A DNA stretch of 64,000 nucleotides from Arthrobacter sp. MYb213 (lineage in GTDB: Bacteria > Actinomycetota > Actinomycetes > Actinomycetales > Micrococcaceae). The stretch covers positions 744,001-808,000 of the forward strand of contig NZ_PCQA01000001.1 in NCBI RefSeq assembly GCF_002979915.1. Direction: 5' to 3'. The notes under the pieces are model-generated. The model had not been told where the DNA came from, ran no database searches, and saw only the letters and a list, made by a program, of their open reading frames with translations. Position numbers and translations under genes: made by a program. Shown here in pieces: positions 17,827-37,093 of this stretch; within the stretch, counting starts at the first letter, position 1, and each line of letters begins with the position of its first letter.

Positions 17827-19011
17827 TTAGATGCTCGTTGCGCGCATCATGTCATCAGCGTCAGAGAGTCGAGAATCAAACTCTTCGATACGCTTTCCTA
17901 CGCCAAGAAGCTCAGCGATGGCAGCTACCGTACGCTCAGATGCTTTTCCGTCACCGTATGGGTTGACGGCGGTTGCCATCTCGTCATAAGCGGCGGAGTC
18001 ATTGAGCAGTTCCGAAACCGAATCAAAGATCCGTTGTTCGTCGGTACCGATGAGACGCACAGTGCCCGCGGTTACGGCCTCTGGACGTTCGGTATTCAAA
18101 CGCATCACCAAGACAGGCTTGCCCAAGCTAGGTGCCTCTTCTTGCACTCCACCTGAATCGGTGAGTACCAAGGTCGAGGCATCGATGATGCGGGTGAACT
18201 CGCCGTAAGCCAGTGGCTCGGTGAGCGTGATGTTTGCGATTCCATCAATCTCCGGCAGCAACGCTTCGCGCACTGCTGGGTTTCGGTGCAACGGCAAGAT
18301 GAACTGAACATCCGGTTCGGCTACAGACAGGCGTGCTAGCGCACGTCCAATGCCGCGCATAGGTTCACCCTGGTTTTCGCGACGGTGAGTCGTCACCAGA
18401 ACAATACGCTTACCTGAGTTCACTAGTTCTTCTAGCTGTGGATCGCTAAACGGAACTTTCTTCTCAACGACGGTGAGCAACGCATCAATCACGGTGTTAC
18501 CGGTGATGACGACGTCCATGCTGTTGAAGGTCTCACGCTCAAGGTTTCGCTTGCTCAACGATGTTGGAGCTAAGTGAACACTGGCAACCTGGCTAGTGAG
18601 CTTACGGTTGGCTTCTTCCGGGAATGGAGAGAAGATGTCGTAGCTACGCAGACCAGCCTCGGCGTGCACTACCGGAATTCCGCGGTAGAACGCTGCAATA
18701 GCGCCTGCCGTGGAGGTAGTGGTGTCGCCCTGGACAACAACAGCGTCCGGCTTTTCTTTTTCAAAGATCTCATCCAAACCAGCAATGGTCTTGGTTAACA
18801 AGCCATTCAAAGTCTGGCGAGGCTGAATCACATCTAAGTCATAGTCCGGCGTGATGCCGAACAATTCATTAACTTGATCCAGCATTTCACGGTGCTGTCC
18901 GGTAACAACAACTACACAATCGAAAATGTCAGACTCTTTTAAAGCCTTGACGATCGGAGCAACCTTGATGGCCTCGGGACGAGTGCCATAGATCGGCATG
19001 ATCTTTTTCAT
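17827..19011 (-). CDS. wecB: UDP-N-acetylglucosamine 2-epimerase (non-hydrolysing)
   Basis: It interconverts UDP-GlcNAc and UDP-ManNAc in the cytosol, feeding surface glycan synthesis. The 394-residue length is normal. Diagnostic stretches are IYGTRPEAIKVAPIVKAL at the start, VVQGDTTTSTAGAIAAFYRG near residue 90, VHAEAGLRS near residue 115 and LTDSGGVQEEAPSLGKPVLV near residue 287. It is the last gene of the large minus-strand cluster, 29 bases after wecC. With wecC it makes UDP-ManNAcA, so the glycan probably contains N-acetylmannosaminuronic acid, as in teichuronic acid-type polymers. Confidence 0.93.
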   Translation of the reverse strand: MKKIMPIYGTRPEAIKVAPIVKALKESDIFDCVVVVTGQHREMLDQVNELFGITPDYDLDVIQPRQTLNGLLTKTIAGLDEIFEKEKPDAVVVQGDTTTSTAGAIAAFYRGIPVVHAEAGLRSYDIFSPFPEEANRKLTSQVASVHLAPTSLSKRNLERETFNSMDVVITGNTVIDALLTVVEKKVPFSDPQLEELVNSGKRIVLVTTHRRENQGEPMRGIGRALARLSVAEPDVQFILPLHRNPAVREALLPEIDGIANITLTEPLAYGEFTRIIDASTLVLTDSGGVQEEAPSLGKPVLVMRLNTERPEAVTAGTVRLIGTDEQRIFDSVSELLNDSAAYDEMATAVNPYGDGKASERTVAAIAELLGVGKRIEEFDSRLSDADDMMRATSI

Positions 19012-19040
19012 TTGAATCTACCCTGTCAGATGGAGAGCGA

Positions 19041-20273
19041 TTAGCGCCAAAGACCGCGAGTGTCAATGACTTCCTTGCCAGCAAGAGTGGTTGCTGGAAC
19101 CGACTTGAATTGGTCATGGTCAACCAACAAGGTAACAACGTTTGCTGCTTCCAATGCTTCATCCATCGGAGTCAATACCAAGTTCGAGATGCCTTCGAGC
19201 TTCTTAGGCAACGCCTGAACATGTGGTTCGACTGCCAAGAATTCAATGGTTGGGTTAGCCACTGCAAGCTTGCGAGCAATTTCGATTGATGGCGATTCGC
19301 GCATGTCATCGATATTTGCCTTGAATGCAAGACCCATTACTGCGACCTTGCCGTTGAAGCTGTCAAGCTTAGTAGCTGCCTCAACCTTTTCAATAACCCA
19401 GTTTGGCTTGGCATCATTGGTATTACGTGCCATACGAATCAAGTTTGATTCTTCAGGGGCCGCCGAAACGATGAACCAAGGGTCAACTGCGATGCAGTGT
19501 CCGCCAACGCCTGGGCCCGGCTGCAAGATGTTCACGCGTGGGTGACGGTTAGCTAGGGAGATCAATTCCCACACGTCTATATCCAAACGATCTGAGATGA
19601 CCGAAAGTTCGTTAGCGAACGCAATGTTGACGTCTCGGTAGGAGTTCTCCACAAGCTTCGCCATTTCAGCGGTTTTTGCATCCGTGGTCAAGATTGCTGC
19701 CTGGCAGAAAGTCTCGTAAAGAGCCTTAGCCTTTTCAGCTGCCTCCGGAGTAATGCCGCCAACGATGCGGTCATTGGTGACTAGCTCTTCCATCACGTAA
19801 CCCGGAAGCACGCGCTCTGGGCAGTGTGCAACCAGAAGGCTGTCACTGGTGAGGTCTGGACGCTTAGCCAGCAGGTATTCTGCTAGGTGCTGGGTAGCAC
19901 CTGGAGGGGAAGTCGACTCTAGAATGACGAGCTCGCCACCCTTGAGCTTCGGTGCGATACCATCTGCTGCTGCCTCAATATAAGACAGGTCTGCGGTGTA
20001 GTCAGCGTTGAAGGGGGTAGGAACCGCTACGATATATGCTTCGGCTTCTGGAGTTTCAAAGCTTGCACTGAGCGTTCCTGCTTCTACGGCGGCTGCGACG
20101 AAATCACCCAGGGCTGGTTCTACGAAAGGAACCTCACCTTTGTTGACTGCTTCGACAGTGCGTGGGGTGACGTCTACACCTTTAACGATTATTCCCTTGG
20201 ACGCAAGGATTGCGGCGGTAGGCAAACCGATGTATCCCAAACCGATGACTGCAACTTCTTTAATGCTATTCAC
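19041..20273 (-). CDS. wecC: UDP-N-acetyl-D-mannosamine dehydrogenase
   Basis: An NAD-dependent enzyme that oxidises UDP-ManNAc twice to UDP-ManNAcA. It has 410 residues. The Rossmann motif is VIGLGYIGLPTAA near residue 9, AHCPERVLPG lies near residue 150, the catalytic-domain helix is LVENSYRDVNIAFANELS near residue 210, and the active-site cysteine is in GPGVGGHCIAVDPWF near residue 255. The start is GTG, preceded by AGAAGG. All key residues are intact, in contrast to the related protein at 52840-54201. Confidence 0.92.
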   Translation of the reverse strand: MNSIKEVAVIGLGYIGLPTAAILASKGIIVKGVDVTPRTVEAVNKGEVPFVEPALGDFVAAAVEAGTLSASFETPEAEAYIVAVPTPFNADYTADLSYIEAAADGIAPKLKGGELVILESTSPPGATQHLAEYLLAKRPDLTSDSLLVAHCPERVLPGYVMEELVTNDRIVGGITPEAAEKAKALYETFCQAAILTTDAKTAEMAKLVENSYRDVNIAFANELSVISDRLDIDVWELISLANRHPRVNILQPGPGVGGHCIAVDPWFIVSAAPEESNLIRMARNTNDAKPNWVIEKVEAATKLDSFNGKVAVMGLAFKANIDDMRESPSIEIARKLAVANPTIEFLAVEPHVQALPKKLEGISNLVLTPMDEALEAANVVTLLVDHDQFKSVPATTLAGKEVIDTRGLWR

Positions 20274-20353
20274 TAAAGTGGCTTTCCTTCTGGTACGAGT
20301 GAAATTCTGAATTCTAGAGCTTGCTATTGATCATATACCGCTACTTTTCCCCA

Positions 20354-20385: not shown

Positions 20386-20404
20386 CGGTTGGTAAGGAGG
20401 TGGA

Positions 20405-22150
20405 TCACAACGGTTTATTTATTACCGACCGGTAAACGCTATCTAACTTCTTGGCATTTTGCGACCACGTGCGCGTATTAAGTACGAGTTCCCGACCTGA
20501 ATCACCCATGTCTGCTACTTTTTCAGGGCTCCTCATCAAGTGATCTATAGTCGTCGCCCATTGATCAACATCACTTGAATCTACTAAATAACCTGTAACG
20601 CCATCCTCGATCAGCTCGTTGAGGGCAGGTAAGTCCGAGGCAAGGACGGGAACTCGTGAGGCAAGTGCTTCTACCGGTTTCAATGGTGTTACTGCACGCG
20701 TAACTGCGCTGTCTTTACGAGGCACGACAAACAAGTTTAATGCAGCGTGATACACATGTGCTTTTTCACGCGGTACTCGACCCGTAAATTCGCAACAATT
20801 CGAAATCCCTAGTTCCGAGGCTAGGCGTATGAGGTTTTCTTTATCAGTACCATCACCAACAATAAGGACCTTAAGATTATGGTTAACCTTATGCAGCTTT
20901 GCTACTGCACGAAGCACTGTATCTAGCCCTTCATAGGGAACCAAACTACTTACTGTGCCAACGTAAAATGCATCGATATCCAAGCCAAGTTCATGCCGAG
21001 CAGCAGAACGCTCAACAGGTTCATTGAGAAATTCGTCGCCAATTCCGTTGGCCAAAATCTCAATTTTAGCGGGTTCCACACCAACCGAGATGAGGTTTTC
21101 TTTCATCTGATCGCCAAGGGTAATCACGTAGTCAGCATTCTTGGCTACGTACGCTTCTCGCTCGCGGAAGAGTTTATAACGCTCGGAATTCTCCGCCGAT
21201 TCGGGTCTTGTGGAGAGCCAGGTATCAGCTAGTTGACCGCGAACCTCATATACCCATGGAATCCCGGTAGCCTCAGAGACTGCTTTGACCGCGAGAGCAT
21301 TTGAGAAATCAGTCGTGGTGTGAAGGATTTGTGGTCGGTCACGAATAACCTTCGCCAGTAACTCCTCAGCTTGCTGTTGAATTCTCCCCGACAGATCATG
21401 CTTTGCTCGTGCTGGAATTAATCTTTCGTACGACACCGGCCCGACTTGATCCGTCGAACTCGCTTGGAAGACGCCGATACTTAACGGATAGTTCACTCTC
21501 GTGCAGGCATTAGTTTTCCATCCTTCGTCGGACAGGGCCGACAATGTGGACTGAGTTCTCTGCGCGTATCCGCTGCCGGTGTGAGGAAGTGAGTTGGTAG
21601 CCAAGAATACTACGGAGTCCTTTTCGGCACTTCTGTCATTTGAAAATTGTGTTTGAGGCAGACTCGGTTCAACACCCGAATAAACTTGATATTCAGAGAC
21701 ATAATGTCGTTTTTGCCTATTCGGCGGGATTTTTTCAAGCAAGGAAATTGCCTCGCTCATATTACCTAAGCCCCATTGCAACCGCGCTTTAGCACGAGTT
21801 GTCTCTGGAGAGCTCTTGGATTGCTCCAATAAATCGTTGGCAGTTGACCATTCGCCACTAGCAATGCAAAGATTCGCGAGGAACACTGCTCCTCGTTTTG
21901 TACTCGACTTCTCCAACCACGTCCTGCACGTCGCCTTTAGTCGAACGCTATCGTCGCGAATCATCGCCGAAAATGCAGAAGCTATGCTCCTTTCATTCCC
22001 CAGTGAGAGAATTCTGTCTAATACTTCGACCGGGAAACGTTTTTTGAACTTCCTTGCTACTTGGAGTGCGAAGTAGCTCGGATCATCTGCGAGATTTGAC
22101 ACGACTAAGAAACCGGTATTCGTAATGTTCGATAGCAACTGGTTGCGCAA
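20405..22150 (-). CDS. Glycosyltransferase, GT4 type, with N-terminal helical repeat region
   Basis: A 581-residue protein. Residues 1-170 look like a helical TPR-type region (SGEWSTANDLLEQSKSSPET, GNMSEAISLLEKIP). Residues 185-575 form a GT-B transferase with VVFLATNSLPHTGSGYAQRT, a central YEVRGQLADTWLSTRPES, VGTVSSLVPYEGLDTVLRAV, LIVGDGTDKENL and LKPVEALASRVPVLASDLPALN with the nucleotide-sugar-binding acidic residue. The start is TTG with AGGA seven bases upstream, eight bases after the previous gene. Its transferase part is a close paralogue of residues 240-640 of the 1471-residue protein at 25415-29830. Donor and acceptor are unknown; it probably acts at the cytoplasmic face of the membrane. 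Confidence 0.82.
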   Translation of the reverse strand: MRNQLLSNITNTGFLVVSNLADDPSYFALQVARKFKKRFPVEVLDRILSLGNERSIASAFSAMIRDDSVRLKATCRTWLEKSSTKRGAVFLANLCIASGEWSTANDLLEQSKSSPETTRAKARLQWGLGNMSEAISLLEKIPPNRQKRHYVSEYQVYSGVEPSLPQTQFSNDRSAEKDSVVFLATNSLPHTGSGYAQRTQSTLSALSDEGWKTNACTRVNYPLSIGVFQASSTDQVGPVSYERLIPARAKHDLSGRIQQQAEELLAKVIRDRPQILHTTTDFSNALAVKAVSEATGIPWVYEVRGQLADTWLSTRPESAENSERYKLFREREAYVAKNADYVITLGDQMKENLISVGVEPAKIEILANGIGDEFLNEPVERSAARHELGLDIDAFYVGTVSSLVPYEGLDTVLRAVAKLHKVNHNLKVLIVGDGTDKENLIRLASELGISNCCEFTGRVPREKAHVYHAALNLFVVPRKDSAVTRAVTPLKPVEALASRVPVLASDLPALNELIEDGVTGYLVDSSDVDQWATTIDHLMRSPEKVADMGDSGRELVLNTRTWSQNAKKLDSVYRSVINKPL

Positions 22151-22158: not shown

Positions 22159-23334
22159 CTAGCTCTTGTCTACGCGGGTTACGACGTCACTTAGCAACCG
22201 GGCGTATGTTTGGGCAGCATCACGCAGGGATGCGTTTTGCTTGACCCAAAGTGAACCATGATTTTTGGTCTCTAGTTTATTTGGGTTAGACGCTATGCTC
22301 GTAAAATATTCAACAAGTTCTGCGACCGTCTGACCAACAACTTCTCCGGATTGAGCAGTAGTAATTATGCCAGCTGCTTCACCACGCACCATGCCGGTAA
22401 TGTGACGGTCTAGATACAGTAACTCGTAGAGTTTCGACGGTACCGTGTGATCAAAACTAGGCCAATCCGGTCGAAGTGAAACTACGCAGGTATCGGCCCA
22501 CGCGTAATTTTCGAGGACGAGATTTCCATATACTGGTTCCCTGAAATCAACATCTACATCGAGCTCATCAGCAAGTTCTGCCAAACGCCGTTTTTCGGTA
22601 CCGTTACCCACTATTCTCACGGATACCTTATTGCCGAGAATGTTGGCTGCCCGAATAAGAGTTTCTAGACCTTGGCTTCTGCCAATGTTTCCGAGATAGA
22701 GCACCCGCAACGCGTTGGTTCTTGGCACGTTGTCGATAATGACTTCAGGCCGTTCAGTTTCCACGCCATTAGCTATCGTCGCAACATTTTTAACGCCATT
22801 GAGCCGCATCTTGACCGCAAGTCCTCGCGTCACCGTTACCAACAAATCGCTGCGTCTCACGAAATACGCAAGCGCGTGAGAAACCATAGGTTCTAGCCAG
22901 CGCCACTTTAAGACCTGAGATTCCCTCAAAAGATCAGGCCATGCGTCACGTAGATCCACTACGAAAGGAACTCCACGGATTTTGCTGACAATGAATCCGA
23001 CAACGAGTGTTGGCAAGGCCGGGACAGTCGCAATCACTACGTCTGGGCGTGTCGTTTTTAATGCGGCGGGCACACTCAACACTGCATCCACACCATGCTT
23101 AAGCACTTTTCCAACCATGGTTTTAGACTTACGTAGTGACTTATAACGTCGAAGGTGAATTCCAGGGTTGTCCATAGAGGATGGACCTCCCTGAACCGAT
23201 TTGCCCTGCGGTTGGGGAGTAACAACGGTGATCTCATTACCAAGCTTTGCCAGTTCATCTGCGATAACTGACCAACGTCGTTGTGGAGGAGAAATTTCAG
23301 GCGAGAACGAATGAGTCAGCAACATGATTTTCAT
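22159..23334 (-). CDS. Glycosyltransferase, GT4 family (WbuB-like)
   Basis: A 391-residue GT-B transferase. The N-terminus MLLTHSFSPEISPPQRRWS is typical of WbuB-like sugar transferases. Then follow VPFVVDLRDAWPD near residue 123, VTRGLAVKMRLNGVKNVATIANGVE, VLYLGNIGRSQGLETLIRAA near residue 215, IVGNGTEKRRLAELADEL and VPSKLYELLYLDRHI near residue 310, the donor-binding segment. The ATG is preceded by AAGGAG at ten bases. Such enzymes often add amino sugars such as FucNAc or GlcNAc in O-antigen and capsule synthesis, but specificity cannot be read here. Confidence 0.87.
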   Translation of the reverse strand: MKIMLLTHSFSPEISPPQRRWSVIADELAKLGNEITVVTPQPQGKSVQGGPSSMDNPGIHLRRYKSLRKSKTMVGKVLKHGVDAVLSVPAALKTTRPDVVIATVPALPTLVVGFIVSKIRGVPFVVDLRDAWPDLLRESQVLKWRWLEPMVSHALAYFVRRSDLLVTVTRGLAVKMRLNGVKNVATIANGVETERPEVIIDNVPRTNALRVLYLGNIGRSQGLETLIRAANILGNKVSVRIVGNGTEKRRLAELADELDVDVDFREPVYGNLVLENYAWADTCVVSLRPDWPSFDHTVPSKLYELLYLDRHITGMVRGEAAGIITTAQSGEVVGQTVAELVEYFTSIASNPNKLETKNHGSLWVKQNASLRDAAQTYARLLSDVVTRVDKS

Positions 23335-23383: not shown

Positions 23384-25297
23384 TTAGAAGAAAAGATGCT
23401 TGTCATTGCGTCCAAACCATTGAATCTTACCAGTCGCCGTGAGTTCAGCATCGCTTAGTCCCCAGGTATGGGCTTTTCCGTCCCCGCTACGCATTTGCAT
23501 GAAGTTAAACCGGTCGCTTGAGTAGACGGTTCCGCCTCCGTCAATAACGTCACGCAGGAACTGGGTATCTTCTCCCCTGCTGCGCGACGCAAAGGGCGTG
23601 CTCTTAAAAACAGATGCATGTCCAAGCATCGTTGGCCCCATGACCAAGTTGGTAAATCGGTGCTCGCGTTCAGCAAACCGCAAGAGGGTCGCATCCGAAT
23701 CAGCAAGGTACATGAAGTGAGCTTGTTTACCTACCACAGAGGCACCGCTGTAGCGCAAGGCCGAGACTTGATCAAAGAGATAGTTCGCGCCGTAAAGATC
23801 ATCATCATCCATTTTAGTGATGAAGTCGCCACTCGCCTCCGCGACAGCTGCGTTCAAGCAGTCGCCCAATGACAGCTCTGATGATAATTCAAGAATCTTA
23901 TAGTCTGTAAGATTCGCTTCCAAGGCTTTTGACTTAAACTCTTCATGATCAAGGCTGAATCCATGTGTGACCAGAATAAGCTCGGTATCAACGTTGAGCT
24001 GAGACGCGACGGTGGAAATAATATGGTCTATCTGATGAGGGCGGATCGTTGAAACCACTGCTGAAACCTTTGGGCGCGTGGTCATTGATTCAGCGGAAGC
24101 TACAACCATCGGCAATCCAACAAATGCTTCGACTTCGCGGGCGCGGTGTGCGTAGGTATGTTCGGTCCAGATCCTCCGTTGCCCAAGGTGAACTATACGG
24201 TCACGTAGTTCTGGGCTCTGAACAATACTGCGAATTGCGTTGGCAGCGTCTTCACGGGTTGAGACTTCTAAGACCTCAGATGGGTCAAAGAAGTTTCTGA
24301 TGGCGGCGCTTGGTGCCGATACGACTGCGCTGCCGGCCGCGGTGATCTCAAAAATGCGCCGGGCACACATGCTCGGTGAGTCCACTACTGAGTTTACGTT
24401 GAGGAAAACGTTGTAGTACTTATATGCCGATAGCATCCGGTCATAGTCCAAAGAGCCAACCACATACTGGTCGTATGGAGCCGGGAACTGATACTTCTCG
24501 TCTCCCCCGTGTTGGCGGGAGAAAATATCAACACCGTGAGGGAGTTTGTGGGAAACGTCCGCGGCACCGCCAAGCACGATTTCCATTTGCTCACGACGTT
24601 CCGGAAATTTGTGGGCAAAATACATTCCGGCAAAAGCTACGTCGCGGCGCTCTTGAGTCAGTGAACGGACCGGGTTATGAAAGGCAGGTTGGGCACCGAA
24701 ACTTAGGGATGCCACTCGATCATGGCCTAGCTCGCGTCGGTAATCGTCAATTTTTCGCTCATCAGAAGTCAACACGAAATCAAAAAGACGTGCGCTGTCC
24801 AAAAAATCTTCAAAGTGTGGAGGGTCTTCCTTATTCCAGAAGACCGCAGGAATTTCTTTAGCTTTGAAGGCAGTGACCATCTCGACTAAAGCGGGTCTTG
24901 GCGCGCTCGTTCCAGTGAGATGATACTGCCAGGCTTTGTTGTTCCCCGCCCATGCGGATTCAACGAAGAGCATATCGAAATCTATCTCTTCAAGATGTTC
25001 CTGCCAGTTGGCCGGGGTAATGAAGGTGCAGTCCCATTCTGGCCCCCAAGCCCTTGCGCTAAAGTCGTCTAATATAACGGCAACTTTGAGGGAATTTACC
25101 GACCGCTGGGCTGGTTCGAAAACGACGGGTGGTAGCTGAAGACCAAGGGCGTTCTCTACGTCGGTTTGGAAACTATGGTTAAAGCCGCCCACACGAGATT
25201 CGTAATTACTGCGACGGTACCATTCTTGGAATTGTCGAGGACCACCCTGTCGAAGATGCCACAGTGCTTTTCGAAACTCGCCTAATGCAATTTTCAC
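23384..25297 (-). CDS. Bifunctional glycosyltransferase: CgeB-like module plus GT2 module
   Basis: A 637-residue fusion. Residues 70-395 resemble the CgeB / Glyco_trans_1_2 type: FDMLFVESAWAGNNKAW, IPAVFWNKEDPPHFEDFLDSA, NVNSVVDSPSMCARRIFEI. Residues 405-625 form a GT-A (GT2) domain with VSAVVSTIRPHQIDHIISTV, the metal-binding DDDD motif in ITKMDDDDLYGANYLFDQVS near residue 495, and a C-terminal RGEDTQFLRDVIDGGG. Both active modules therefore seem intact. The start is GTG. The CgeB-like part is paralogous to residues 690-960 of the next protein upstream (25415-29830). It is likely a surface-glycan polymerising enzyme with two activities. Confidence 0.82.
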   Translation of the reverse strand: MKIALGEFRKALWHLRQGGPRQFQEWYRRSNYESRVGGFNHSFQTDVENALGLQLPPVVFEPAQRSVNSLKVAVILDDFSARAWGPEWDCTFITPANWQEHLEEIDFDMLFVESAWAGNNKAWQYHLTGTSAPRPALVEMVTAFKAKEIPAVFWNKEDPPHFEDFLDSARLFDFVLTSDERKIDDYRRELGHDRVASLSFGAQPAFHNPVRSLTQERRDVAFAGMYFAHKFPERREQMEIVLGGAADVSHKLPHGVDIFSRQHGGDEKYQFPAPYDQYVVGSLDYDRMLSAYKYYNVFLNVNSVVDSPSMCARRIFEITAAGSAVVSAPSAAIRNFFDPSEVLEVSTREDAANAIRSIVQSPELRDRIVHLGQRRIWTEHTYAHRAREVEAFVGLPMVVASAESMTTRPKVSAVVSTIRPHQIDHIISTVASQLNVDTELILVTHGFSLDHEEFKSKALEANLTDYKILELSSELSLGDCLNAAVAEASGDFITKMDDDDLYGANYLFDQVSALRYSGASVVGKQAHFMYLADSDATLLRFAEREHRFTNLVMGPTMLGHASVFKSTPFASRSRGEDTQFLRDVIDGGGTVYSSDRFNFMQMRSGDGKAHTWGLSDAELTATGKIQWFGRNDKHLFF

Positions 25298-28400: not shown

Positions 28401-29830
28401 AGAAGGTCCAGTCCTTCGTAGTTGACGAGGCTGCCGGCGTACCCGAGTAGGAACTCTCCAGCTCGTTTTTTAGTAACGACTGAGGAGCGTTCAGCCGGCA
28501 ACGGAACATACTGGAAAATATTTGCGGCGTTAGGCAGGATTGAGATATTCGCTTTGGTCGCTCCGCGTGATATCAGTTCTTCACGGACTTCTTCGGTGAT
28601 TGCGAAAACTTGATCAGCTTCGTTTGCCACGAGTGCTTCAAGATTGCGTGCGAGTTCAAATCGCTCTGAGTTTAGCCAAGTATCGTTGTCAGCTGCCGCG
28701 GTGATTTCCCAGAGCCCACGGACCTCGTAAATAAACGGAATCCCGAGTCGTCGCGCAGCGATGAGTGCTGGTAGTGCAGTGATGTGGTTCGAAGCTGAAA
28801 CGATAACTGCGGGACGATTCATCATCGCTTCGCGCACGTAGATGTCAGCCGCAAGTTGGACAAATTTGTCTAGCGGATCGTCACGGAGTGACACCCCAGG
28901 ATTAAAGTGGGTCTTAACTCCCTGGAAGTCACGGATCAGTCGCTTCTGCGATGGAGCTTTCTTCGTTACCTTAGAATCCCATGGGTAACCCGGACGGGCA
29001 GCTATAAACAGATCCATTCCGGTGTCAATAACAGCCTTGGTGATGCCCGTCGTGCGAGTTGAGTATCCATTGCTGTTGAACTCACCGGTACTGTGTGCAC
29101 AGTACATCACTTTGTCCGATTGCGAGATATATGCCGGCGTGGATGTCCTTGGTGGGACAGAGGGCAATACTTTTAGCAGTCTTGCCTGGCCCATGACCTG
29201 GAGCTGAAGCGGACCAAAATTCTTCGGTGCATCGGGCACGGCAAGAAGCAAGCGTAAAGCATCTGCTGGTTCAGTAATTTTCCCAAGATCACGGTACTTT
29301 TCGACTTCCAGCTTCGCGATTTGCTGGATACTAGGTTCATGGAGTTCACTTGAACTAGCCGACGTAACGGCTGAGTCAGTAGGTGCCAGTTCTTTTTGCG
29401 GGTTAATAGCAGCTACTGGGGTTACCACCGCAGACTTTTTGCTGAATGGGGTTTTTATCCCTCGCGCCGCTCGAACTACCGGATGATCACGTAAATTCTC
29501 ATACGCGAGCTTAAACTTCTCGGCACGTGCATTTTCGTTTGCTAGTTGGGTCTTCAAAGTTGCAGCCATGCGACTGAACTTTTGCCTTTCAACTTCTGTC
29601 CTCTTGATTGTAGTTTGATGTCGAGCAATCAACCCGTTTACTTTAACTAACTGCTTCCGAAGCGTCTCGTTCTCTGCTTTAAATGTCCGGTATTGGGACT
29701 CAAACTTCACCAAATCGGCGAGCATCGCTTGTTCGATGTCCTCGCCGTGTATTTCATATCGCTTGCGAATGGCAAATAACTGGGCCCTAGAAGCCGTTGG
29801 CGAATCAGAACTCTGTCTTGAGGATTTCAA
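25415..29830 (-). CDS. Giant multi-module glycosyltransferase (coiled coil, GT4, CgeB-like, degenerate GT2, GT-B)
   Basis: A 1471-residue protein with five parts. Residues 25-110 are a charged coiled coil. Residues 240-640 are a GT4 transferase (EFNSNGYSTRTTG, YEVRGLWEITAAAD, GSLVNYEGLDLLV, LKPIEAMAAGRPVIGSDV). Residues 655-960 are a CgeB-like module (DVLFVESAWAGNSETW, IPTIFWNKEDPVHF). Residues 975-1125 look like a worn-out GT2 domain without a DxD motif. Residues 1145-1471 are a second GT-B transferase (NILIAGHDLKFAGQIM, FVGMVPQMKRFDLVLDLLEAL). The start is TTG with GGAG eight bases before it. No signal peptide or membrane segment is seen, so it is probably a cytosolic multi-step glycan assembly enzyme. 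Each module has a paralogue elsewhere in this cluster. Confidence 0.8.
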   Translation of the reverse strand: MKSSRQSSDSPTASRAQLFAIRKRYEIHGEDIEQAMLADLVKFESQYRTFKAENETLRKQLVKVNGLIARHQTTIKRTEVERQKFSRMAATLKTQLANENARAEKFKLAYENLRDHPVVRAARGIKTPFSKKSAVVTPVAAINPQKELAPTDSAVTSASSSELHEPSIQQIAKLEVEKYRDLGKITEPADALRLLLAVPDAPKNFGPLQLQVMGQARLLKVLPSVPPRTSTPAYISQSDKVMYCAHSTGEFNSNGYSTRTTGITKAVIDTGMDLFIAARPGYPWDSKVTKKAPSQKRLIRDFQGVKTHFNPGVSLRDDPLDKFVQLAADIYVREAMMNRPAVIVSASNHITALPALIAARRLGIPFIYEVRGLWEITAAADNDTWLNSERFELARNLEALVANEADQVFAITEEVREELISRGATKANISILPNAANIFQYVPLPAERSSVVTKKRAGEFLLGYAGSLVNYEGLDLLVDSIAGLPEEFNHIGALIVGDGKALPALKQQVAELGLDERIRFTGREPNEKINDYLAIFDAVVCPRKSNIVTELVSPLKPIEAMAAGRPVIGSDVSPIATLLGTDSERGLLFAADNVDSLTEQITKLARDPKLGQNIGRRARQWTVETRTWPIVAQTFTEHVRTVQKRSSTGKKLKDIRMAIIADEFTTSTLKREVNLVAPTPDNWRQILQSQPIDVLFVESAWAGNSETWTRKVGYYDDDQCSDLDALTKYCRENGIPTIFWNKEDPVHFNRFRRTAQLFDVVLTTDANCLEDYWENRGGYMRALGSLPFWAQAEIHNPSGSTRPYSHSVAYGGSYYGERYAERSQELRVILEGARKQGLTIYDRQADNPDSPYNFPSALQPFVQGGLTYDQMVEAYKSHPVHVNVNSVNGSPTMFSRRVFEIAACGTPLISGKSFGVTWMFDGTVPVVRSREESELITSLWMQSEADRVMDAWAPMRITFQKHLAHHRLALALRMAGIAVEIPTLPTLGLELETLDEDIVEQILASSVRPCEVYVSRTEENSAAIDTLKSYGIQSVAPGNPRQAEVSVSRVEKVLGDSHLLEDLLIAYEYGGASSVEASEQDLNVRGLSLWLKDEPSLDSPLLKMEQANDPSRQFHLRLRRPFNVLQEQNSHATSTGANVTTGERNILIAGHDLKFAGQIMKSVEGHGHKLSVDQWAGHAQHDSELSSQLLEDADTVFCEWSLGNLAWYSKHVNANQRLVSRFHSQELFTDYPNKVKFKNVDLIIFVSELIRGMAIQKFGIPEEKTCVIPNSVDTSKLDLPKDPDARFVLGFVGMVPQMKRFDLVLDLLEALRTKDERFTLRVKGKRPEDYPWMAAREDEMAFYDAQYARIENSPLLQGAVIFDPQGDDMAQWYQQIGVAVSTSDFESFHFTLADGAASRALPVGLAWPGSEWLYPKEWLFTDTELAANRIADIVSNRDRLDTSVEEARQFTVENYDVEKIMAQLTAVIEKN

Positions 29831-30027: not shown

Positions 30028-31851
30028 TCAAGCGTTATAAATCCAAGAACCCGAGAACCAAACACTTGCCGTGAAAGTTCGCCATACATACTTTGCAAAC
30101 TCACGATGCACCGTCGAATAGGTTTGTTCTTCGCCAGAGGCCACGAGATCGACGTTAAGAATAAATTTAGAGTCCAAATGGCTTGCGACGAACGGCCAAT
30201 TGTCAAGTTCAATCAGCTGTTGACATAGGCTCGTGATGAAGGGTTTCGATAGTTCTTCGCCTTCCCCCTCGACTCCATCGAGATCTGGTGCAACTTTACT
30301 TGCACTTGGGAGTTCAACTGGCTGGATGCGCTGATCGTATGAATCACCTGACAGCTCAGCATTGGCTCCCCCACTTTCGAATCTCCAGGACGAACCATGA
30401 AAACTAAGATTCAATGACTCCGGCCAAATCTTTCGTAAAGCGACAAAAAGTGCCTTCTCCGAGACCTTCTCCGCCATTGACAGCCGGTCGCAGATTGCAG
30501 TGACTCGCATATCACTAATCGGATACACGATCTTTGCATCTTGTGCATAGTGATTAATATGCGATTGCATATACCGACCCGAACGAAACTCACGTGCAAA
30601 CAGGTAAAGTTTCTCTAATTCGCTACTCGCTGACACATTTTTACGCCATGACGTAAGGAATTCTCCATGCTGCTCACTTAACGCGCTCCGCAGAATCCCT
30701 GACGATTGCTTCTCTAACATTAAAGTTGTGTATTCAGGTGTGTTCCTTAAGAGCTTCGCCATACCACCTTTCCAAAGTGGCCATTGGCCGAGCGCAATTG
30801 CTTCCCCAAAAAATTCTGGAGCGGCACCTAAATACTGCGATAAATGGGCTTCCGATGGTGGAATTCCCAAGCATCGCTTAATAACATTGGCTGTTCTAAC
30901 TGCAGCGGTGTCACCAATTTCGAAAGATGGTCGTCCAATGTCGTGTCTGATACCAGTTATTGAAGCCAGTTTGGCAGAAAGGTGCGTTTCTAAGTCCGAG
31001 TTCGTGCCGTAAGTGACCGCCCTAACCTCGGCCTCTGTGTTTTTTAGCGCACCCAACAGCATCCTCGAATCTTTCCCCCCACTCAGCCGTAACTGAAGCC
31101 TACGATCCTCCAGTTGCGTAACAGCATCGGCGGTTGAGTCGGTCAAAGCATCAGCCAAAGCTTCGCCGCCTTCAACAGTCGTATGCTCAACAGAAAAATC
31201 TGGCACTAACCCGTGTGGAAAATCAGTTAGGGCTATCTCCCCATCGATTATCTTCAGCGCCCGATCTACGGGCAGTGTAAGAACATCTGCAAAAGGAGTG
31301 TTCCCCTCTAACGAGTATCCATAATTCAAATATTCTAGAAAATATGGATAACTTAGTGATAATCGAGTATCCGAAATTTCAGAGAGAGCAAGCGCGATTA
31401 GCAACGGACGGTTCGATACGAAGTTAAAACCATATTTAGTAGCATAATGAATAGGCTCCAGAGCCGGAGTCGTATTCCATGCAAAAATCCTGTTCATATA
31501 GCGGTCGCCAAACGCCGCACAATAAGTACCCCATATTGGCTTCTGGTACGCCAGCTGACCGCCAATCAGTCGGACGGCAGAGTTGACACCTTGAGCACTA
31601 TGAAAATCGGAAGCGACAGTCCAGTAGTCTCCAGTAGATACTTGGCTTGGAACCTCACGGCCTCTCGACATTGCGAACGTTCCATATTTACTCGCCAAAG
31701 CATGAAGAGTATTATTCATCGACGAGTGACCAATAGAGTAATTCTCAAAATTGGAAAACGTAGTGGATAATAGATTTCCGATAAATTCATTCAGATTGGT
31801 AGTGTCCTTCAAACGTTCTGCCGACGGACTAATGATTAAAAACTCGCTCAT
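30028..31851 (-). CDS. Asparagine-synthetase-like ATP-dependent ligase lacking the glutaminase cysteine
   Basis: A 607-residue protein from the ATG that overlaps the upstream stop (ATGA). Residues 210-480 hold the synthetase fold with the PP-loop LRLSGGKDSRMLLGAL near residue 255, which binds ATP, and DIRHDIGRP-like downstream contacts. The N-terminal half resembles a degraded Ntn domain (WGTYCAAFGDRYMNRIFAWN, YGFNFVSNRPLLIAL). Residue 2 is Ser rather than the Cys nucleophile, so glutamine-dependent ammonia release is unlikely. The family includes amidotransferases of uronic-acid O-antigens and beta-lactam-synthetase-like enzymes. With wecB and wecC nearby, amide or peptide-like modification of a uronic acid is a reasonable inference, unproven. 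The region is AT-rich. Confidence 0.75.
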   Translation of the reverse strand: MSEFLIISPSAERLKDTTNLNEFIGNLLSTTFSNFENYSIGHSSMNNTLHALASKYGTFAMSRGREVPSQVSTGDYWTVASDFHSAQGVNSAVRLIGGQLAYQKPIWGTYCAAFGDRYMNRIFAWNTTPALEPIHYATKYGFNFVSNRPLLIALALSEISDTRLSLSYPYFLEYLNYGYSLEGNTPFADVLTLPVDRALKIIDGEIALTDFPHGLVPDFSVEHTTVEGGEALADALTDSTADAVTQLEDRRLQLRLSGGKDSRMLLGALKNTEAEVRAVTYGTNSDLETHLSAKLASITGIRHDIGRPSFEIGDTAAVRTANVIKRCLGIPPSEAHLSQYLGAAPEFFGEAIALGQWPLWKGGMAKLLRNTPEYTTLMLEKQSSGILRSALSEQHGEFLTSWRKNVSASSELEKLYLFAREFRSGRYMQSHINHYAQDAKIVYPISDMRVTAICDRLSMAEKVSEKALFVALRKIWPESLNLSFHGSSWRFESGGANAELSGDSYDQRIQPVELPSASKVAPDLDGVEGEGEELSKPFITSLCQQLIELDNWPFVASHLDSKFILNVDLVASGEEQTYSTVHREFAKYVWRTFTASVWFSGSWIYNA

Positions 31852-34028
31852 GCCATTTCCTTTCCTTGTATCAGTGAAGCCCACAGTTCCGTTCCTACCG
31901 TTACGTCGTACTTAGAAGCTTGTGACTTTGCTCTTAGCATGAGACTTTCACGAGCTTCTGGATCACGGAGCAATAGGATCGCTTCAGTCATCTCATCCAA
32001 GGAATCGTAAACAAAATCGTCCGAAAAGATCTGTGAAGCGCCCGCTCGTTCCCATACCACAGGGACTGCTCCGCCCGCCATTCCTTCAATCGGGGCTAAA
32101 TGAAAACTCTCCCGTGTACTACTCGATAGAACAACACCTATCTTCCTAAACCACGACCCCATGTCTGGACCGAAATCTTCGAAAACTACAGCTTTTGACA
32201 ACGCTGCGTTAGAGGCAATTTCTGTGAAGAATTCTTCATAAGCGAATCGTTGCAGTCCTTTGTTCCATTCATATGGATATTCCCAAGGCATACGGCCTCG
32301 GATGTGAAGGGTGTAACGATCATCTTCTTGTAGCAGCTTTTTCAGTAGCTTTAACGCTCGATCCGGACGTTTAATAAAAGGAACGATTCCCACGAGACCT
32401 ATGCGGAACTCGGAACCCCTGCTCTTTGGCCTGTCCAGATCAAGGGAGTCGATTAGATTAGGGATCACAGCGATTTTTTCCCGCGGCCAATCCGTTGACT
32501 CTAAAGTCTGCGTCGCGTATAAATCAGATACACATAATACTCGCTCAACGTTATCGATATTTATATTTCTCAGCCAAGCACCACGGAGCTCAAAAGCGTG
32601 TAATCGTATAAAAAGCTTTTGGGAATCCTGAATATTTTGTGAATACCAAACAGCATTCGGTCCCGCCCATTCGCAAATGACAAAATCAGCAGAAGCTAGT
32701 AGCTCTATACTTTTCTTTTCATCATGCTTGTGGAGGCTTTCCCACTTATCAATCGATAATTCAACGCCAGGTAACGCTTCAAAAAACTGGATTAGCTCGC
32801 CAGCAAATTTTAGATCGTGCCCGGCGATGAGTATCTTTGCTGGTTGTTCTTGGTCTTCATAAGAATTGATAATCGGTAAATCACGTTCAAAATAGTTTCT
32901 AAATCGAGTTGCTGCTGCTCGCATCGAATACTGCTTTACACAGTTTCGAACCTTTGAGCGATAACAACGAATCTCGCCACGATTTGCTGATACCACTTCT
33001 ACTAAACTGGAAATATCGTCACGAACGAAGAACGGGTAATCCGTGCCAAAGATTTCTTCATGTGCTCGTGTGCGATTAATTATTGGAGGAACTCCCGAAG
33101 CGGCATATTCCAGCGCCTTAGTAGATATTTCCATACTAGAATCTAGCGCAGAGGTCCGCCACCCAAGACCAAGATCAGCTTTGCGAATTCGTTTCATCGT
33201 CTCAAGACGGCTAAGCCCACCAAGCCATTTAACCTCAGAACCAAATATACTTTTTTCCATCTTTTCGTGCCAACTTGGATCACGACGACTCTGCTGGAAT
33301 TTATTGCCGATCATTGTAATCTCTATGTGTAAGTTCTGCTGCTTAAACGCATTTGGGAGCGATAACATTTCATAGGTTTTCCAATCTTCGGCAAACTTTC
33401 CTGCATACACCATCTCAACCGGTGAATTCGGTTCGAGATTCGCCTCAACTACGCGGTCATCATACTCATCAAAGTAAATATCAGGAACCATCGGTAACAT
33501 TAAACGCGTTTTCCCCGCTGCTTGCGGACATAACGCTTCGAGATATGCACGCGATTCTTCTGTCTGAGAGAATAATCGATACGCCCGATCTGATATTAAT
33601 CTCAGATCAGATAGTGCCTGGTCCGTAACTTTGTCGATCGGGAAAGGTAAGTCCGTAACATAGAGCCAAGATTTATGATGTAGTTTATCGGACATCGCTA
33701 GGAACTTGCACACAGTCATGCCACGCGCAATAATCGCGTTGAAGCGAACAGTTGAATCCAGTCCAAGTATCCGCTGTGCCGCTTTACGAGGGCTTAATGA
33801 AACTTCTTGATTTTCCGACGTTAGCTCTGATGGCGCATGAAGCACAAAATTTTCGTTTTCTCGAAGTGCAGCAAGTGAATCATTTTTCAGCACCTTCGTT
33901 TTAAGTAAGACATGCACTTCAGCGTCGGCCAACAATAAAGCTTCGGAAATTGACGTGAGCCAAATGGCTGAACCGTCAATGATGTTCAAATTTACGTCAC
34001 CGTAAACCAGTATCTTCCGTTTGCTCAT
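31848..34028 (-). CDS. Tandem double GT-B glycosyltransferase
   Basis: A 726-residue protein made of two GT-B units. Residues 1-370 contain KILVYGDVNLNIIDGSAIWL, EMVYAGKFAEDWKTYEML and KALEYAASGVPPIINR, a GT4-like transferase. Residues 395-726 contain AKILIAGHDLKFAGELIQFF, FVICEWAGPNAVWYSQNI, RIGLVGIVPFIKRPDRALKLL and ESFHLAPIEGMAGGAVPVV. This second unit is clearly paralogous to the C-terminal unit of the 1471-residue protein. It follows the membrane coiled-coil gene by one base and overlaps the asparagine-synthetase-like gene by ATGA, so the three are tightly coupled. Substrates are unknown. Confidence 0.82.
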   Translation of the reverse strand: MSKRKILVYGDVNLNIIDGSAIWLTSISEALLLADAEVHVLLKTKVLKNDSLAALRENENFVLHAPSELTSENQEVSLSPRKAAQRILGLDSTVRFNAIIARGMTVCKFLAMSDKLHHKSWLYVTDLPFPIDKVTDQALSDLRLISDRAYRLFSQTEESRAYLEALCPQAAGKTRLMLPMVPDIYFDEYDDRVVEANLEPNSPVEMVYAGKFAEDWKTYEMLSLPNAFKQQNLHIEITMIGNKFQQSRRDPSWHEKMEKSIFGSEVKWLGGLSRLETMKRIRKADLGLGWRTSALDSSMEISTKALEYAASGVPPIINRTRAHEEIFGTDYPFFVRDDISSLVEVVSANRGEIRCYRSKVRNCVKQYSMRAAATRFRNYFERDLPIINSYEDQEQPAKILIAGHDLKFAGELIQFFEALPGVELSIDKWESLHKHDEKKSIELLASADFVICEWAGPNAVWYSQNIQDSQKLFIRLHAFELRGAWLRNINIDNVERVLCVSDLYATQTLESTDWPREKIAVIPNLIDSLDLDRPKSRGSEFRIGLVGIVPFIKRPDRALKLLKKLLQEDDRYTLHIRGRMPWEYPYEWNKGLQRFAYEEFFTEIASNAALSKAVVFEDFGPDMGSWFRKIGVVLSSSTRESFHLAPIEGMAGGAVPVVWERAGASQIFSDDFVYDSLDEMTEAILLLRDPEARESLMLRAKSQASKYDVTVGTELWASLIQGKEMA

Positions 34029-34029
34029 T

Positions 34030-35190: not shown

Positions 35191-35270
35191 TAATTACCCC
35201 TTTCATATATTCGTTATCGAAGTACGTGGTTCGATAAATTGTAAGCTAAAGTAAAATGGATTGTTATGTT

Positions 35271-36209
35271 TCAAACACCTTGGTTGGATGACCAAGACTT
35301 GAAAAATTCTCCAGCGTAGGTTTTGCTGGGAGATTGCACGAAATTCAACTCGTACAGGGCCGAATTCCACGAGCGCGGATTTTTTGCCGCGAATACAGCT
35401 CGTAGAATTCTCCTAAATAGATCCACTGGCGGCGCGATGTGCCCTGGTCCCCAATCGTCCAATAATAAGAATAGATTGTTTGGAGATGTATCCAGACCGC
35501 GGACCCAAGGCGCCAAATGCCTATCGCGATGATGACCATCTCGAATATTCTGTAAATATGCAATTTTATTGGGGAAACCATCACGATATAACTTGGTAAG
35601 ATCGCTGGTGATATTTACGTTATCAAGATCTAATGAGTCCCATGCCATTTCTGTATAATTGTCAACTGCGAACTTTGTATAGTTACCGATTTTTGTTTGC
35701 GGATTTGCAACGAGCGCTAAGGACTCGGGGAATAAATAAGAGTAATAGAGGGCTGCAAAGCCACCACCTGATGCGCCAAAGAATATAAGTTTTTCGGCAG
35801 TTCTCACACTGCTCAAAATATGACGGATCACTCCGGGAAGCTGTATCTGCAATCGTTGATGTTGATTCCCCGCAAACCATGCTAATTCAAGACCAAGGGC
35901 GAGAGAGGGATCGGATACGGCAATTATGTTGGCATCCAGTCCTTCCATCATGCTCATCCCAGAAAACACAGGATATGATTTCCAAGTCTTGGACTGCGCG
36001 GCATGAAAAATCACAATTGTGTTTTTGGACCCGCGATCTTCGAAATAAACGTCTAGGTACCCGGTTCCATACTTTATTGTTGAAATGCCTGGGAGCGCTT
36101 CTTGAGAGAAAAATGACTGAAGACTGGAATAATCGTTTTGTTTGAATGAAAACCGTGCTAAGTTGCGCGCTAGTTTTTTCTTCTGAATCCCATTTACATT
36201 CTGGTTCAT
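35271..36209 (-). CDS. Alpha/beta-hydrolase-like protein with intact nucleophile elbow
   Basis: A 312-residue protein with an alpha/beta-hydrolase core. A strand with IFHAAQSKTWKSYPVF is followed by LIFFGASGGGFAALYYS near residue 145, the nucleophile elbow with Ser. A late Gly-His (GPGHIAPP, near residue 265) could supply the catalytic His, and RDGHHRDRHLAPWV precedes it. There is no signal peptide, so it is likely cytosolic. The start ATG overlaps the stop of its paralogue upstream. In a glycan cluster, an acyl-transfer or esterase role on the sugar chain is plausible, comparable to Asp2-type enzymes. The gene is AT-rich relative to flanking housekeeping genes. Confidence 0.62.
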   Translation of the reverse strand: MNQNVNGIQKKKLARNLARFSFKQNDYSSLQSFFSQEALPGISTIKYGTGYLDVYFEDRGSKNTIVIFHAAQSKTWKSYPVFSGMSMMEGLDANIIAVSDPSLALGLELAWFAGNQHQRLQIQLPGVIRHILSSVRTAEKLIFFGASGGGFAALYYSYLFPESLALVANPQTKIGNYTKFAVDNYTEMAWDSLDLDNVNITSDLTKLYRDGFPNKIAYLQNIRDGHHRDRHLAPWVRGLDTSPNNLFLLLDDWGPGHIAPPVDLFRRILRAVFAAKNPRSWNSALYELNFVQSPSKTYAGEFFKSWSSNQGV

Positions 36210-37093
36210 AACGATAGATTCCTAATATTAATGGTGCTCAGGTCTCGGCTAAATGTTCGCAAAATATTATTAATAGTGCGTGCGTAAGCCCCTCTGGATT
36301 CTTTCTGGAAGTCCGCCAAGATCAGTATGCGGTCCTCGCCAAATCGGTTCTCGCCCTCCGTTAGCTCTTTTCCGGTCGTACCGAGCCAAAAGTTCTCGGC
36401 ATTCAGGCGTGCAATTGGGTTAGTGATCTGATGCAGGCAAAGAAGCCTTCTCGGCGATTTAAGAGTTTCTAGGCTGATAATATTGGTTCTAATCTTGCCG
36501 TTAGTTCTATACATACTGAATTTCTTCCAGTCTGGCTTCTCAAGCGCAACACGGGAAAAGCCAAATACAGCACCTAAGAACGGTTTAACTAGTGACGGTG
36601 GTGCATCATATAGGTCAGTGTGCGCGTCCCATGTCATTACACTTGCTCTCCCCTTGAATTTACGGCCGAATTCGAGTGCGGCGAAACCTCCTCCATTGCC
36701 ACCTGCGAAAATGATCTCTTTATCGAGCATCCGTTGCAATGATTTGAAAACATCCGTCAAACTGTCTTTGAAAGAGTCACCGGGTTTGCCCGTATACCAG
36801 CCTAATTGAAGTTCTGTTAATTCCTTTAAAGTCGAATCCGCTACCGCCACGACTGGTAAATCCTCGTCCAAGAAACTACCGAATGCTCTTCCAGGCCAAG
36901 CAATCTCATCTTTTATTTTCTTGGCCCCGCCAAAAAGTACAATCAATGAACTATACGCTGAATCAAAAACTGCCTTGTTGATTTTAATTTCAACGCTGTT
37001 CCCATTCAGTAAATTAATGGAATGAATCCCAATTAGACCTCTCGCTGCATTCTCAAATTCGTCAAGGCTATCCCACACATGAACTATGTTCAT
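36206..37093 (-). CDS. Alpha/beta-hydrolase-like paralogue with the catalytic Ser replaced by Asn
   Basis: A 295-residue protein aligned by eye with the next gene: VVAVADSTLKELTELQLGWY versus IIAVSDPSLALGLELAWF, and IIFAGGNGGGFAALEFGR versus LIFFGASGGGFAALYYS. The residue at the nucleophile position is Asn, so it is probably a non-catalytic partner or uses different chemistry. It is the first gene of the cluster; GAGGAA lies eight bases before the ATG. The ATGA overlap with its paralogue suggests equimolar synthesis and a heterodimer. No membrane segment or signal peptide is seen. Confidence 0.6.
   Translation of the reverse strand: MNIVHVWDSLDEFENAARGLIGIHSINLLNGNSVEIKINKAVFDSAYSSLIVLFGGAKKIKDEIAWPGRAFGSFLDEDLPVVAVADSTLKELTELQLGWYTGKPGDSFKDSLTDVFKSLQRMLDKEIIFAGGNGGGFAALEFGRKFKGRASVMTWDAHTDLYDAPPSLVKPFLGAVFGFSRVALEKPDWKKFSMYRTNGKIRTNIISLETLKSPRRLLCLHQITNPIARLNAENFWLGTTGKELTEGENRFGEDRILILADFQKESRGAYARTINNILRTFSRDLSTINIRNLSL

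What the first reader, a model, noticed from the sequence alone, without database searches (positions are those of the whole stretch)
17827..37093. 19-kb same-strand glycan cluster with paired hydrolase-like proteins and no visible exporter
The cluster encodes UDP-ManNAcA synthesis, five big transferases, an asparagine-synthetase-like protein, a membrane coiled-coil protein and two hydrolase-like proteins. I see no ABC exporter, Wzx/Wzy, initiating phosphoglycosyltransferase or ligase. Either export genes are elsewhere or the sugar is put on a protein or lipid by a different route. The combination of gene types is not one I recognise.
Basis: partly seen in the sequence, partly recalled or inferred. 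Interest (0 to 1): 0.7.

Follow-up and report, generated by a model that had tools for sequence, protein, structure and literature searches.

The report
Cell-wall sugar-polymer cluster, exporter nearby

Summary
In detail: eleven genes on the minus strand, 17827-37093, between a NYN-domain gene (next to metG) and serA, with no exporter, initiating enzyme or ligase among them. The rest of the genome largely solves the puzzle. A TagGH-like ABC exporter and an adjacent LCP ligase gene lie 41 kb away. Of 295 sampled family genomes, all 99 with the core transferase (23384) also have the exporter permease; in 50 of 63 non-genus genomes with comparable positions the two lie within 3 kb. In this genus (Glutamicibacter, inferred) the gap is 39-47 kb.

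Best reading: a teichuronic-acid-like wall polymer containing ManNAcA, with a conserved core (17827-29830) and a low-GC variable half (30028-37093). Protein 35271 belongs to a family that Pfam and NCBIfam barely detect, sharing the Gln-extended Ser-Asp-His active site of the capsule O-acetyltransferase CsaC, which its describers thought unique. Protein 36206 is a paralogue that has lost all five catalytic positions. The trio is not a conserved block. Cluster: new variant of a known kind. The acetyltransferase family is the more interesting part.

The parts
17827..19011 (-). wecB/mnaA-type non-hydrolysing UDP-GlcNAc 2-epimerase (core)
   Evidence: TIGR00236 E 5.3e-137; 85-98% identical in 8 genus-mates
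19041..20273 (-). wecC-type UDP-N-acetyl-D-mannosamine dehydrogenase, gives UDP-ManNAcA (core)
   Evidence: NF008286 E 1.8e-167, 557 bits over cut-off 459
20405..22150 (-). GT4-type glycosyltransferase (core)
   Evidence: PF00534 E 1.3e-33; homologues in core sites
22159..23334 (-). GT4-type glycosyltransferase, WcaI-like (core)
   Evidence: PF13579 E 1e-13; NF007640 E 3e-17, below its cut-off
23384..25297 (-). two-domain glycosyltransferase (Glyco_trans_1_2 + GT2), marker of the core; in 99 of 295 family genomes
   Evidence: PF13524 E 2.5e-21, PF00535 E 2e-5
25415..29830 (-). 1471-aa glycosyltransferase with several GT domains
   Evidence: PF13692, PF00534, PF13524; 86% in G009 (L083), 79% in G004, 67% in G015
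30028..31884 (-). divergent PP-loop ([ST]GGxDSR) protein of asparagine-synthetase type; predicted carboxyl-activating/amide-forming enzyme (weak); start of the low-GC variable half
   Evidence: SGGKDS motif; profile match E 2.2e-6, E 1.5e-7 with it held out of training; fold prediction failed, pLDDT 31.6
31848..34028 (-). two-domain glycosyltransferase (variable half)
   Evidence: PF13524, PF13692, PF00534
34030..35190 (-). membrane-anchored coiled-coil-like protein of unknown role, rare (character read by eye)
   Evidence: no family; match in 2 of 295 genomes; 40.5% GC
35271..36209 (-). CsaC-like alpha/beta-hydrolase-fold O-acetyltransferase (predicted): S147, Q171, D224, H227, H257
   Evidence: model pLDDT 91.5; Foldseek ranks CsaC first
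36206..37093 (-). paralogue of 35271 with the catalytic positions replaced (N, H, N, A, S): predicted pseudoenzyme
   Evidence: found by 35271 alone at E 4.4e-5; family profile with it held out of training E 5.1e-35
16699..17703 (-). NYN-domain gene: conserved flank of the variable site
   Evidence: 17 of 17 genus-mates
37250..38917 (-). serA: other conserved flank of the variable site
   Evidence: 17 of 17 genus-mates

Best explanation
The cluster directs cytoplasmic synthesis of an acidic, ManNAcA-containing wall polysaccharide (teichuronic-acid-like). Shown by sequence: WecB and WecC to make UDP-ManNAcA, five glycosyltransferases, and elsewhere in the genome a WecA-like initiator, a TagGH-like ABC exporter and LCP ligase genes. 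Inferred: WecA starts a lipid-linked chain, the large transferases extend it in the cytoplasm, TagGH (41 kb away) exports it and an LCP enzyme attaches it to peptidoglycan, or the chain is added to wall teichoic acid made by the locus beside TagGH. [quoted passage not shown] 36206 is a catalytically dead copy that may hold substrate or pair with 35271. 30028 probably activates a carboxyl group, possibly that of ManNAcA, to form an amide (weakest step). The half 30028-37093 is a probably imported, variable decoration module at a chromosomal site where genus members carry different surface-polymer genes.
For: Exporter: ABC2_membrane at 725482-726327 with a TagH-like ATPase beside it and an LCP gene adjacent (726472-727533). 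Of 295 family genomes, 99 (this one included) have 23384 and all 99 have the TagG homologue, against 87 of the 196 without 23384 (Fisher p 1.5e-26, which ignores relatedness). Outside the genus, 63 of 90 genomes had both positions on one contig; in 50 the gap is under 3 kb, 49 of them 865-958 bp. In the genus 9 of 9 gaps are 39-47 kb. Initiator: a WecA-like and a MraY gene; no PF02397. One-locus relatives: L131 has GT homologues, a DUF6270-fused ABH gene, DUF6270, wecB, wecC, LCP, TagH and TagG; L092 has wecB, GT homologues, TagGH, DUF6270 and ABH. 35271: model pLDDT 91.5; CsaC chains at Foldseek ranks 1, 2, 4, 5, 6 (E 2e-7 to 7e-7) and chain B of the Gap123 complex (taken to be the Asp2 homologue, recalled) at 20. 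A family profile aligns CsaC S114 and Q138 with S147 and Q171 (E 0.38 alone). Gln at S+24, His at D+3 and an aromatic residue at S-35 agree with the residues named in the CsaC paper (PMC7501274, section 12). Complete S/Q/D/H/H in 60 of 76 domains with letters at all five. Control: after GxSxG, Pro-Gln at S+23/24 in 50 of 96 cases inside the family and 0 of 175 in other ORFs of the same loci; Gln alone at S+24 in 54 of 96 and 7 of 175. Variable half: GC 0.442 against 0.517-0.563 in 57 overlapping same-length stretches elsewhere in the window; the best relative of 35271 seen is in Corynebacterium (48%), with 40% in a family member (G018) and about 30-34% in genus-mates.
Against: No chemistry exists. 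CsaC is only narrowly ahead of esterases in Foldseek (rank 3 is S-formylglutathione hydrolase, E 3.7e-7; 636 matches with E <= 0.001), so an esterase remains possible. 35271 has Phe112 where CsaC has Tyr79. The sequence match to CsaC alone is not significant; that to Asp2 is better (E 0.0014). The TagG, TagH and WecA assignments are below the curated NCBIfam cut-offs. That this polymer uses TagGH is inferred from co-occurrence; the exporter stands with teichoic-acid genes and may serve only those. 13 of the 63 comparable non-genus genomes have a wider gap (7 of them in genus g23) and 27 of 90 had no comparable position. ABH genes also occur in genus sites without the ManNAcA core. No background rate was measured for glycan genes near random genes. 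Wzx and Wzy families were not searched genome-wide.
Confidence: 0.7

Rival explanations
1. The sugars are put on a protein in the cytoplasm, as in accessory-Sec glycoprotein systems, and the Asp2-like proteins take part in its export.
For: 35271 matches Asp2 profiles weakly (PF16929 E 9.7e-6; TIGR03712 E 3.9e-5); an LPxTG surface protein is encoded close by at 39539-42574.
Against: Only one SecA match in the genome. Asp2 scores below both curated cut-offs. Asp2 has Leu at the position of Gln171. Several relatives sit with TagGH and wall-polymer genes; I did not look for Sec genes near them.
Confidence: 0.06
2. The cluster makes short chains that are attached to wall teichoic acid made by the locus 20-40 kb outside the window, as in the Streptomyces teichuronic-acid/teichoic-acid hybrid (utr locus), and TagGH exports the hybrid. 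This is a variant of the best explanation, not its opposite.
For: The exporter stands among Glyphos_transf, TarS_C1 and CDP-alcohol transferase genes. PMC13274773 (passages and section 9) describes such a hybrid with a 4-O-acetylated ManNAc3NAcA end and strongly varying loci.
Against: Outside the genus 23384 sits within 3 kb of TagG in 50 of 63 comparable genomes, which fits an independent polymer. The genes that would attach it to a polyol phosphate are not identified.
Confidence: 0.3
3. 35271 and 36206 are ordinary esterases or degraded remnants that happen to lie in the cluster.
For: The alpha/beta-hydrolase fold is common and many esterases match the model; 36206 has lost its catalytic residues.
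Against: 35271 and 59 other domains of 76 keep the CsaC-type Gln and His with the triad. The domain is fused to DUF6270 in five proteins scanned and to heparinase-like or GT2 domains in others. 28 of 33 actinobacterial loci have at least one core glycan, exporter or DUF6270 gene in the fetched flanks (no background rate measured).
Confidence: 0.2

Closest known systems
CsaC (SacC), capsule O-acetyltransferase of Neisseria meningitidis serogroup A (PMC7501274; passages and section 12 read)
   Same: alpha/beta-hydrolase fold; Ser-Asp-His triad with Gln at S+24 and His at D+3; acts in a polysaccharide locus; CsaC's substrate is a ManNAc polymer, the window makes a ManNAc-derived sugar
   Different: 13-15% identical in the Foldseek alignments; 35271 has Phe for Tyr79 and is longer (312 aa against 255 in the PDB chain); activity untested; 36206 lacks the active site
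Asp2 of the accessory Sec system (PMC5578698; passages read)
   Same: Best sequence match of 35271; a glycan O-acetylating enzyme with a Ser-His-acid triad
   Different: One SecA only in this genome; Leu at the Gln position; below curated cut-offs. [quoted passage not shown]
Streptomyces utr locus, TUA-WTA hybrid (PMC13274773; passages and section 9 read)
   Same: ManNAc-derived uronic acid, several GTs, predicted O-acetyltransferase, strong locus variation between species
   Different: Utr uses ManNAc3NAcA synthesis genes and TarS/TarM-like transferases; the window has WecB/WecC and other GTs. Utr proteins were not compared by sequence here
Micrococcus luteus teichuronic acid, [ManNAcA-Glc]n (PMC3005890; passages read, abstract included)
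   Same: Micrococcus is in the same family (recalled); ManNAcA-containing wall polymer
   Different: Its synthetase is a complex of ~52.5 and ~54 kDa subunits; genes were not compared here
Bacillus subtilis tua operon
   Same: Uronic-acid wall polymer as a concept
   Different: Recalled: uses a PF02397-type TuaA and a Wzx/Wzy-like route; no PF02397 match in this genome

Membership tests
CsaC-type polysaccharide O-acetyltransferase | alpha/beta-hydrolase fold | tested here: met
   35271 model pLDDT 91.5; CsaC is the first Foldseek match
CsaC-type polysaccharide O-acetyltransferase | Ser-Asp-His triad plus Gln (S+24) and His (D+3) | tested here: met
   35271: S147, D224, H257, Q171, H227 by sequence alignment; geometry in the model was not measured
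CsaC-type polysaccharide O-acetyltransferase | Tyr79 positioning the Gln | tested here: not met
   35271 has Phe112; Tyr in 65 of 91 family domains. So only 'CsaC-like' is claimed
CsaC-type polysaccharide O-acetyltransferase | Acetyl-CoA-dependent acetyl transfer to a polysaccharide | not testable with these tools
   needs biochemistry
CsaC-type enzyme (36206) | Catalytic residues | tested here: not met
   N, H, N, A, S at the five positions; the only one of 92 domains without Ser
Accessory Sec Asp2 | Curated family score | tested here: not met
   25.4 against 28 (Pfam), 22.9 against 210.75 (NCBIfam)
Accessory Sec Asp2 | Second SecA in the genome | tested here: not met
   one SecA_DEAD match
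Accessory Sec Asp2 | SecY2, Asp1, Asp3 and a serine-rich repeat adhesin | not tested
   not searched
Teichuronic-acid-type locus | Genes for a nucleotide-activated uronic acid | tested here: met
   WecB and WecC equivalogs over cut-off
Teichuronic-acid-type locus | Repeating polymer bound to the wall | not testable with these tools
   needs wall chemistry
ABC-exporter-dependent wall polymer | TagGH/Wzm-Wzt exporter in the cluster | tested here: not met
   not matched in 17827-37093; present 41 kb away
ABC-exporter-dependent wall polymer | Exporter co-occurs with the core in related genomes | tested here: met
   99 of 99
Wzx/Wzy-dependent wall polymer | Wzx flippase and Wzy polymerase | tested here: inconclusive
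   none among cluster ORFs; not searched genome-wide
Asparagine-synthetase-like (30028) | PP-loop motif and N-terminal glutaminase Cys | tested here: inconclusive
   SGGKDS present; no Cys at the start of the protein; fold failed

The most novel reading that the evidence does not exclude
A family of CsaC-like polysaccharide O-acetyltransferases that Pfam and NCBIfam barely detect, marked by the Gln-extended triad once thought unique to CsaC, is a shared decoration toolkit of surface polymers in Actinobacteria and several Gram-negative groups. It travels with DUF6270 and PP-loop amide-forming enzymes and is swapped as low-GC modules into a fixed chromosomal site. The dead member 36206 is a specificity or scaffold partner of 35271.
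Probability: 0.35. Interest if true: 0.6.

Novelty: new variant of a known kind. Interest (0 to 1): 0.42.

Why it matters
It turns a seemingly exporter-less glycan cluster into an ordinary wall-polymer pathway whose exporter has been separated from it, which warns against judging such clusters by neighbours alone. The more useful part is the enzyme family: if 35271 acts as CsaC does, dozens of unannotated proteins in actinobacterial and Gram-negative surface-polymer loci become predicted O-acetyltransferases with a testable five-residue signature. The variable site between the NYN gene and serA would be a natural system for how wall polymers diversify, as reported for Streptomyces targets of umbrella toxins (PMC13274773, section 9).

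Tried and rejected
Rejected: accessory Sec system (one SecA; Asp2 below cut-offs). Rejected: the trio as a conserved block (34030 in 2 of 295 genomes). Rejected: 34030 C-terminus as part of a GT-B domain (HMMER E 0.045 for its relative, against 0.31 for an unrelated control, and nothing for 34030 itself). Led nowhere: fold of 30028 (pLDDT 31.6); its PDB sequence search (best E 0.048, a nuclease); PDB search with the PP-loop family. ABH genes are not strictly tied to ManNAcA: wecB or wecC (>= 45% identity) lie in the fetched flanks in 17 of 33 actinobacterial and 5 of 11 other loci. Two profile scores first taken from searches in which the protein itself could enter the training were repeated with it held out: 36206 went from E 4.5e-51 to 5.1e-35, 30028 from 2.2e-6 to 1.5e-7. 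Literature: CsaC with Asp2 and O-acetyltransferase, 0 papers; DUF6270, 0 papers; in the rows listed I saw no title or abstract start that describes this cluster, but the lists were cut (for example 12 of 1,771) and only the open-licence library was searched.
Full report
What is there. The window holds eleven minus-strand genes at 17827-37093, as described. They encode WecB and WecC (UDP-ManNAcA supply), five glycosyltransferases, a PP-loop protein (30028), a membrane protein (34030, by eye) and two alpha/beta-hydrolase-like proteins (35271, 36206). The genome is very probably a Glutamicibacter: a same-genus genome, G009, has a contig of the same length (271,783 bases) as the Glutamicibacter ardleyensis record that carries L111.

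Where the exporter is. In the same contig, 710-728 kb, lies a teichoic-acid-type locus with CDP-glycerol-type polymerases, a TarS_C1 protein and a CDP-alcohol transferase. Within it are a TagH-like ATPase (724605-725525) and an ABC-2 permease (725479-726327), with an LCP ligase gene adjacent (726472-727533). The NCBIfam scores for TagH and the permease are below the curated cut-offs; the LCP domain is above. The two other ABC2_membrane matches in the genome look like a DrrB-type efflux protein and a YhgE/Pip protein. The genome has one WecA-like gene (below cut-off) and one MraY gene, four LCP matches, one SecA and no PF02397 initiator.

Is the exporter tied to this cluster? I searched 295 sampled family genomes, this one included, for the core transferase 23384 (E <= 1e-60) and for the permease (E <= 1e-25). 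99 have the transferase and all 99 have the permease; of the other 196, 87 have it. Of the 90 transferase-bearing genomes outside the genus, 63 had both on one contig with printed positions: in 50 they are under 3 kb apart (49 of these 865-958 bp, one 2,195 bp), in 11 they are 9.9-52 kb apart and in 2 they are 65 and 80 kb apart. For 27 no same-contig distance could be made: in 23 because the position list was cut, in 4 because the two lie on different contigs. In the genus all 9 are 39-47 kb apart. All 17 genus-mates have exactly one permease match. So the cluster lies apart from its exporter in this lineage, and also in another genus (g23: 7 of the 13 wide gaps).

The site. The NYN gene and serA flank the cluster. 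All 17 genus-mates have both; in 15 both lie on one contig, with about 8.6 to 51.5 kb between them. The five-gene core (17827-25297) is found next to the NYN gene in 8 of 17: G003, G004, G006, G008, G009, G012, G013 and G015. In the fetched sites 25415 has its full counterpart only in G004, G009 and G015. The others hold different content, several with teichoic-acid-type polymerases. The half 30028-37093 has GC 0.442; 57 overlapping stretches of the same length elsewhere in the window lie between 0.517 and 0.563. Iterated profile searches with 34030 or 30028 found only themselves in the fetched stretches, genus sites included; the distant PP-loop link of 30028 came from the other side. This half is a variable, probably imported module.

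The hydrolase-like proteins. 35271 and 36206 belong to one family: 35271 alone finds 36206 at E 4.4e-5, and a family profile trained without 36206 scores it at E 5.1e-35. A profile search of the fetched loci gave 95 domain rows. At the nucleophile 91 of 92 rows with a letter have Ser, at D224 82 of 89 have Asp, at H257 77 of 78 have His, and Gln171 is Gln in 81 of 91. 60 of 76 rows with letters at all five positions have the complete S/Q/D/H/H set; 7 have Arg for Gln, 6 have an S-Q-S-D-H pattern, 2 differ only at H227, and 1 is 36206. The AlphaFold model of 35271 is confident (pLDDT 91.5) and its first PDB match is CsaC, narrowly ahead of esterases. The CsaC paper reports S114, D198, H228 with H201 and Q138, held by Y79, and says the Gln contact 'appears to be a unique element of CsaC' (PMC7501274, section 12). 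The spacing agrees: Gln at S+24, His at D+3, aromatic residue at S-35 (Phe in 35271, Tyr in 65 of 91 rows). The family profile aligns S114 with S147 and Q138 with Q171, although that sequence match alone is not significant (E 0.38). Asp2, the better sequence match (E 0.0014), has Leu at the Gln position. As a control, Pro-Gln follows GxSxG at S+23/24 in 50 of 96 cases inside the family and 0 of 175 elsewhere in the same loci; Gln alone at S+24 in 54 of 96 and 7 of 175.

36206 has Asn, His, Asn, Ala and Ser at the five positions. Nine of its best relatives in 295 genomes were fetched and all nine keep SQDHH, as does its paralogue in this genome at 703310. It is therefore most simply a derived dead copy, the only one among the rows examined. 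Whether it pairs with 35271 is inference.

Wider setting. One genome-contig scan gave 44 loci: 33 in Actinomycetota and 11 in Gram-negative groups (grouping is mine by organism name). In the 33, at least one core glycan, exporter or DUF6270 gene lies within the fetched flanks in 28, DUF6270 in 20, wecB or wecC in 17 and TagG or TagH in 10; in the 11, the figures are 7, 3, 5 and 0. Flanks are at most 10 kb and sometimes shorter, so these are lower bounds; no background rate was measured. The domain is fused to DUF6270 in L131, L117, L100, L130 and L134, to heparinase-like domains in L040 and L105 and to a GT2 domain in L035. This genome has a second set (703310, 704328 PP-loop, 706236 DUF6270, 706948) near the teichoic-acid locus.

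Mechanism and limits. Sugar supply, presence of initiator, exporter and ligase genes, and the active-site signature are shown by sequence. The order of chain building, use of this exporter, wall attachment, acetyl transfer and the amide step of 30028 are inferred.

Noticed in passing
window 39539-42574 (+): LPLTG-anchored protein with SpaA-type prealbumin-like repeats and a Pro/Ser/Thr-rich start, next to serA.
   Followed up: no
G000:C1 702-728 kb (L031, L032), outside the window: Second modification set (two CsaC-like proteins, a PP-loop protein, DUF6270) near a teichoic-acid-type locus with the TagGH-like exporter and an LCP ligase gene.
   Followed up: partly
L131:9320-10951, L117:9770-11779, L100:7388-11122, L130:9992-11977, L134:9944-12277: Fusions of DUF6270 with the CsaC-like domain, pointing to a joint function for DUF6270.
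   Followed up: partly
L114:10824-12329, L099:2742-4160, L125:11985-13421: A second subgroup of the family with a GSKG elbow, resembling CsaC's SSKGG, encoded beside large GT25415-like transferases.
   Followed up: no
L065:13134-14636, L067:16888-18405: CsaC-like domain followed by a hexapeptide-repeat acyltransferase-like stretch (read by eye); these have Arg for Gln171.
   Followed up: no
L056:5713-7625 (G015): The counterpart of 23384 is split into two overlapping frames, so it may be broken or a sequencing error; wecC of the same site is split too.
   Followed up: no
L100, L105, L107, L109, L117: Gram-negative loci (Aliarcobacter, Acinetobacter, Lysobacter, Accumulibacter, Pseudoxanthomonas) carrying wecB and/or wecC with relatives of the window's transferases; each was fetched by a match to the CsaC-like family, though my ORF calls show no intact one in L107.
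   Followed up: partly
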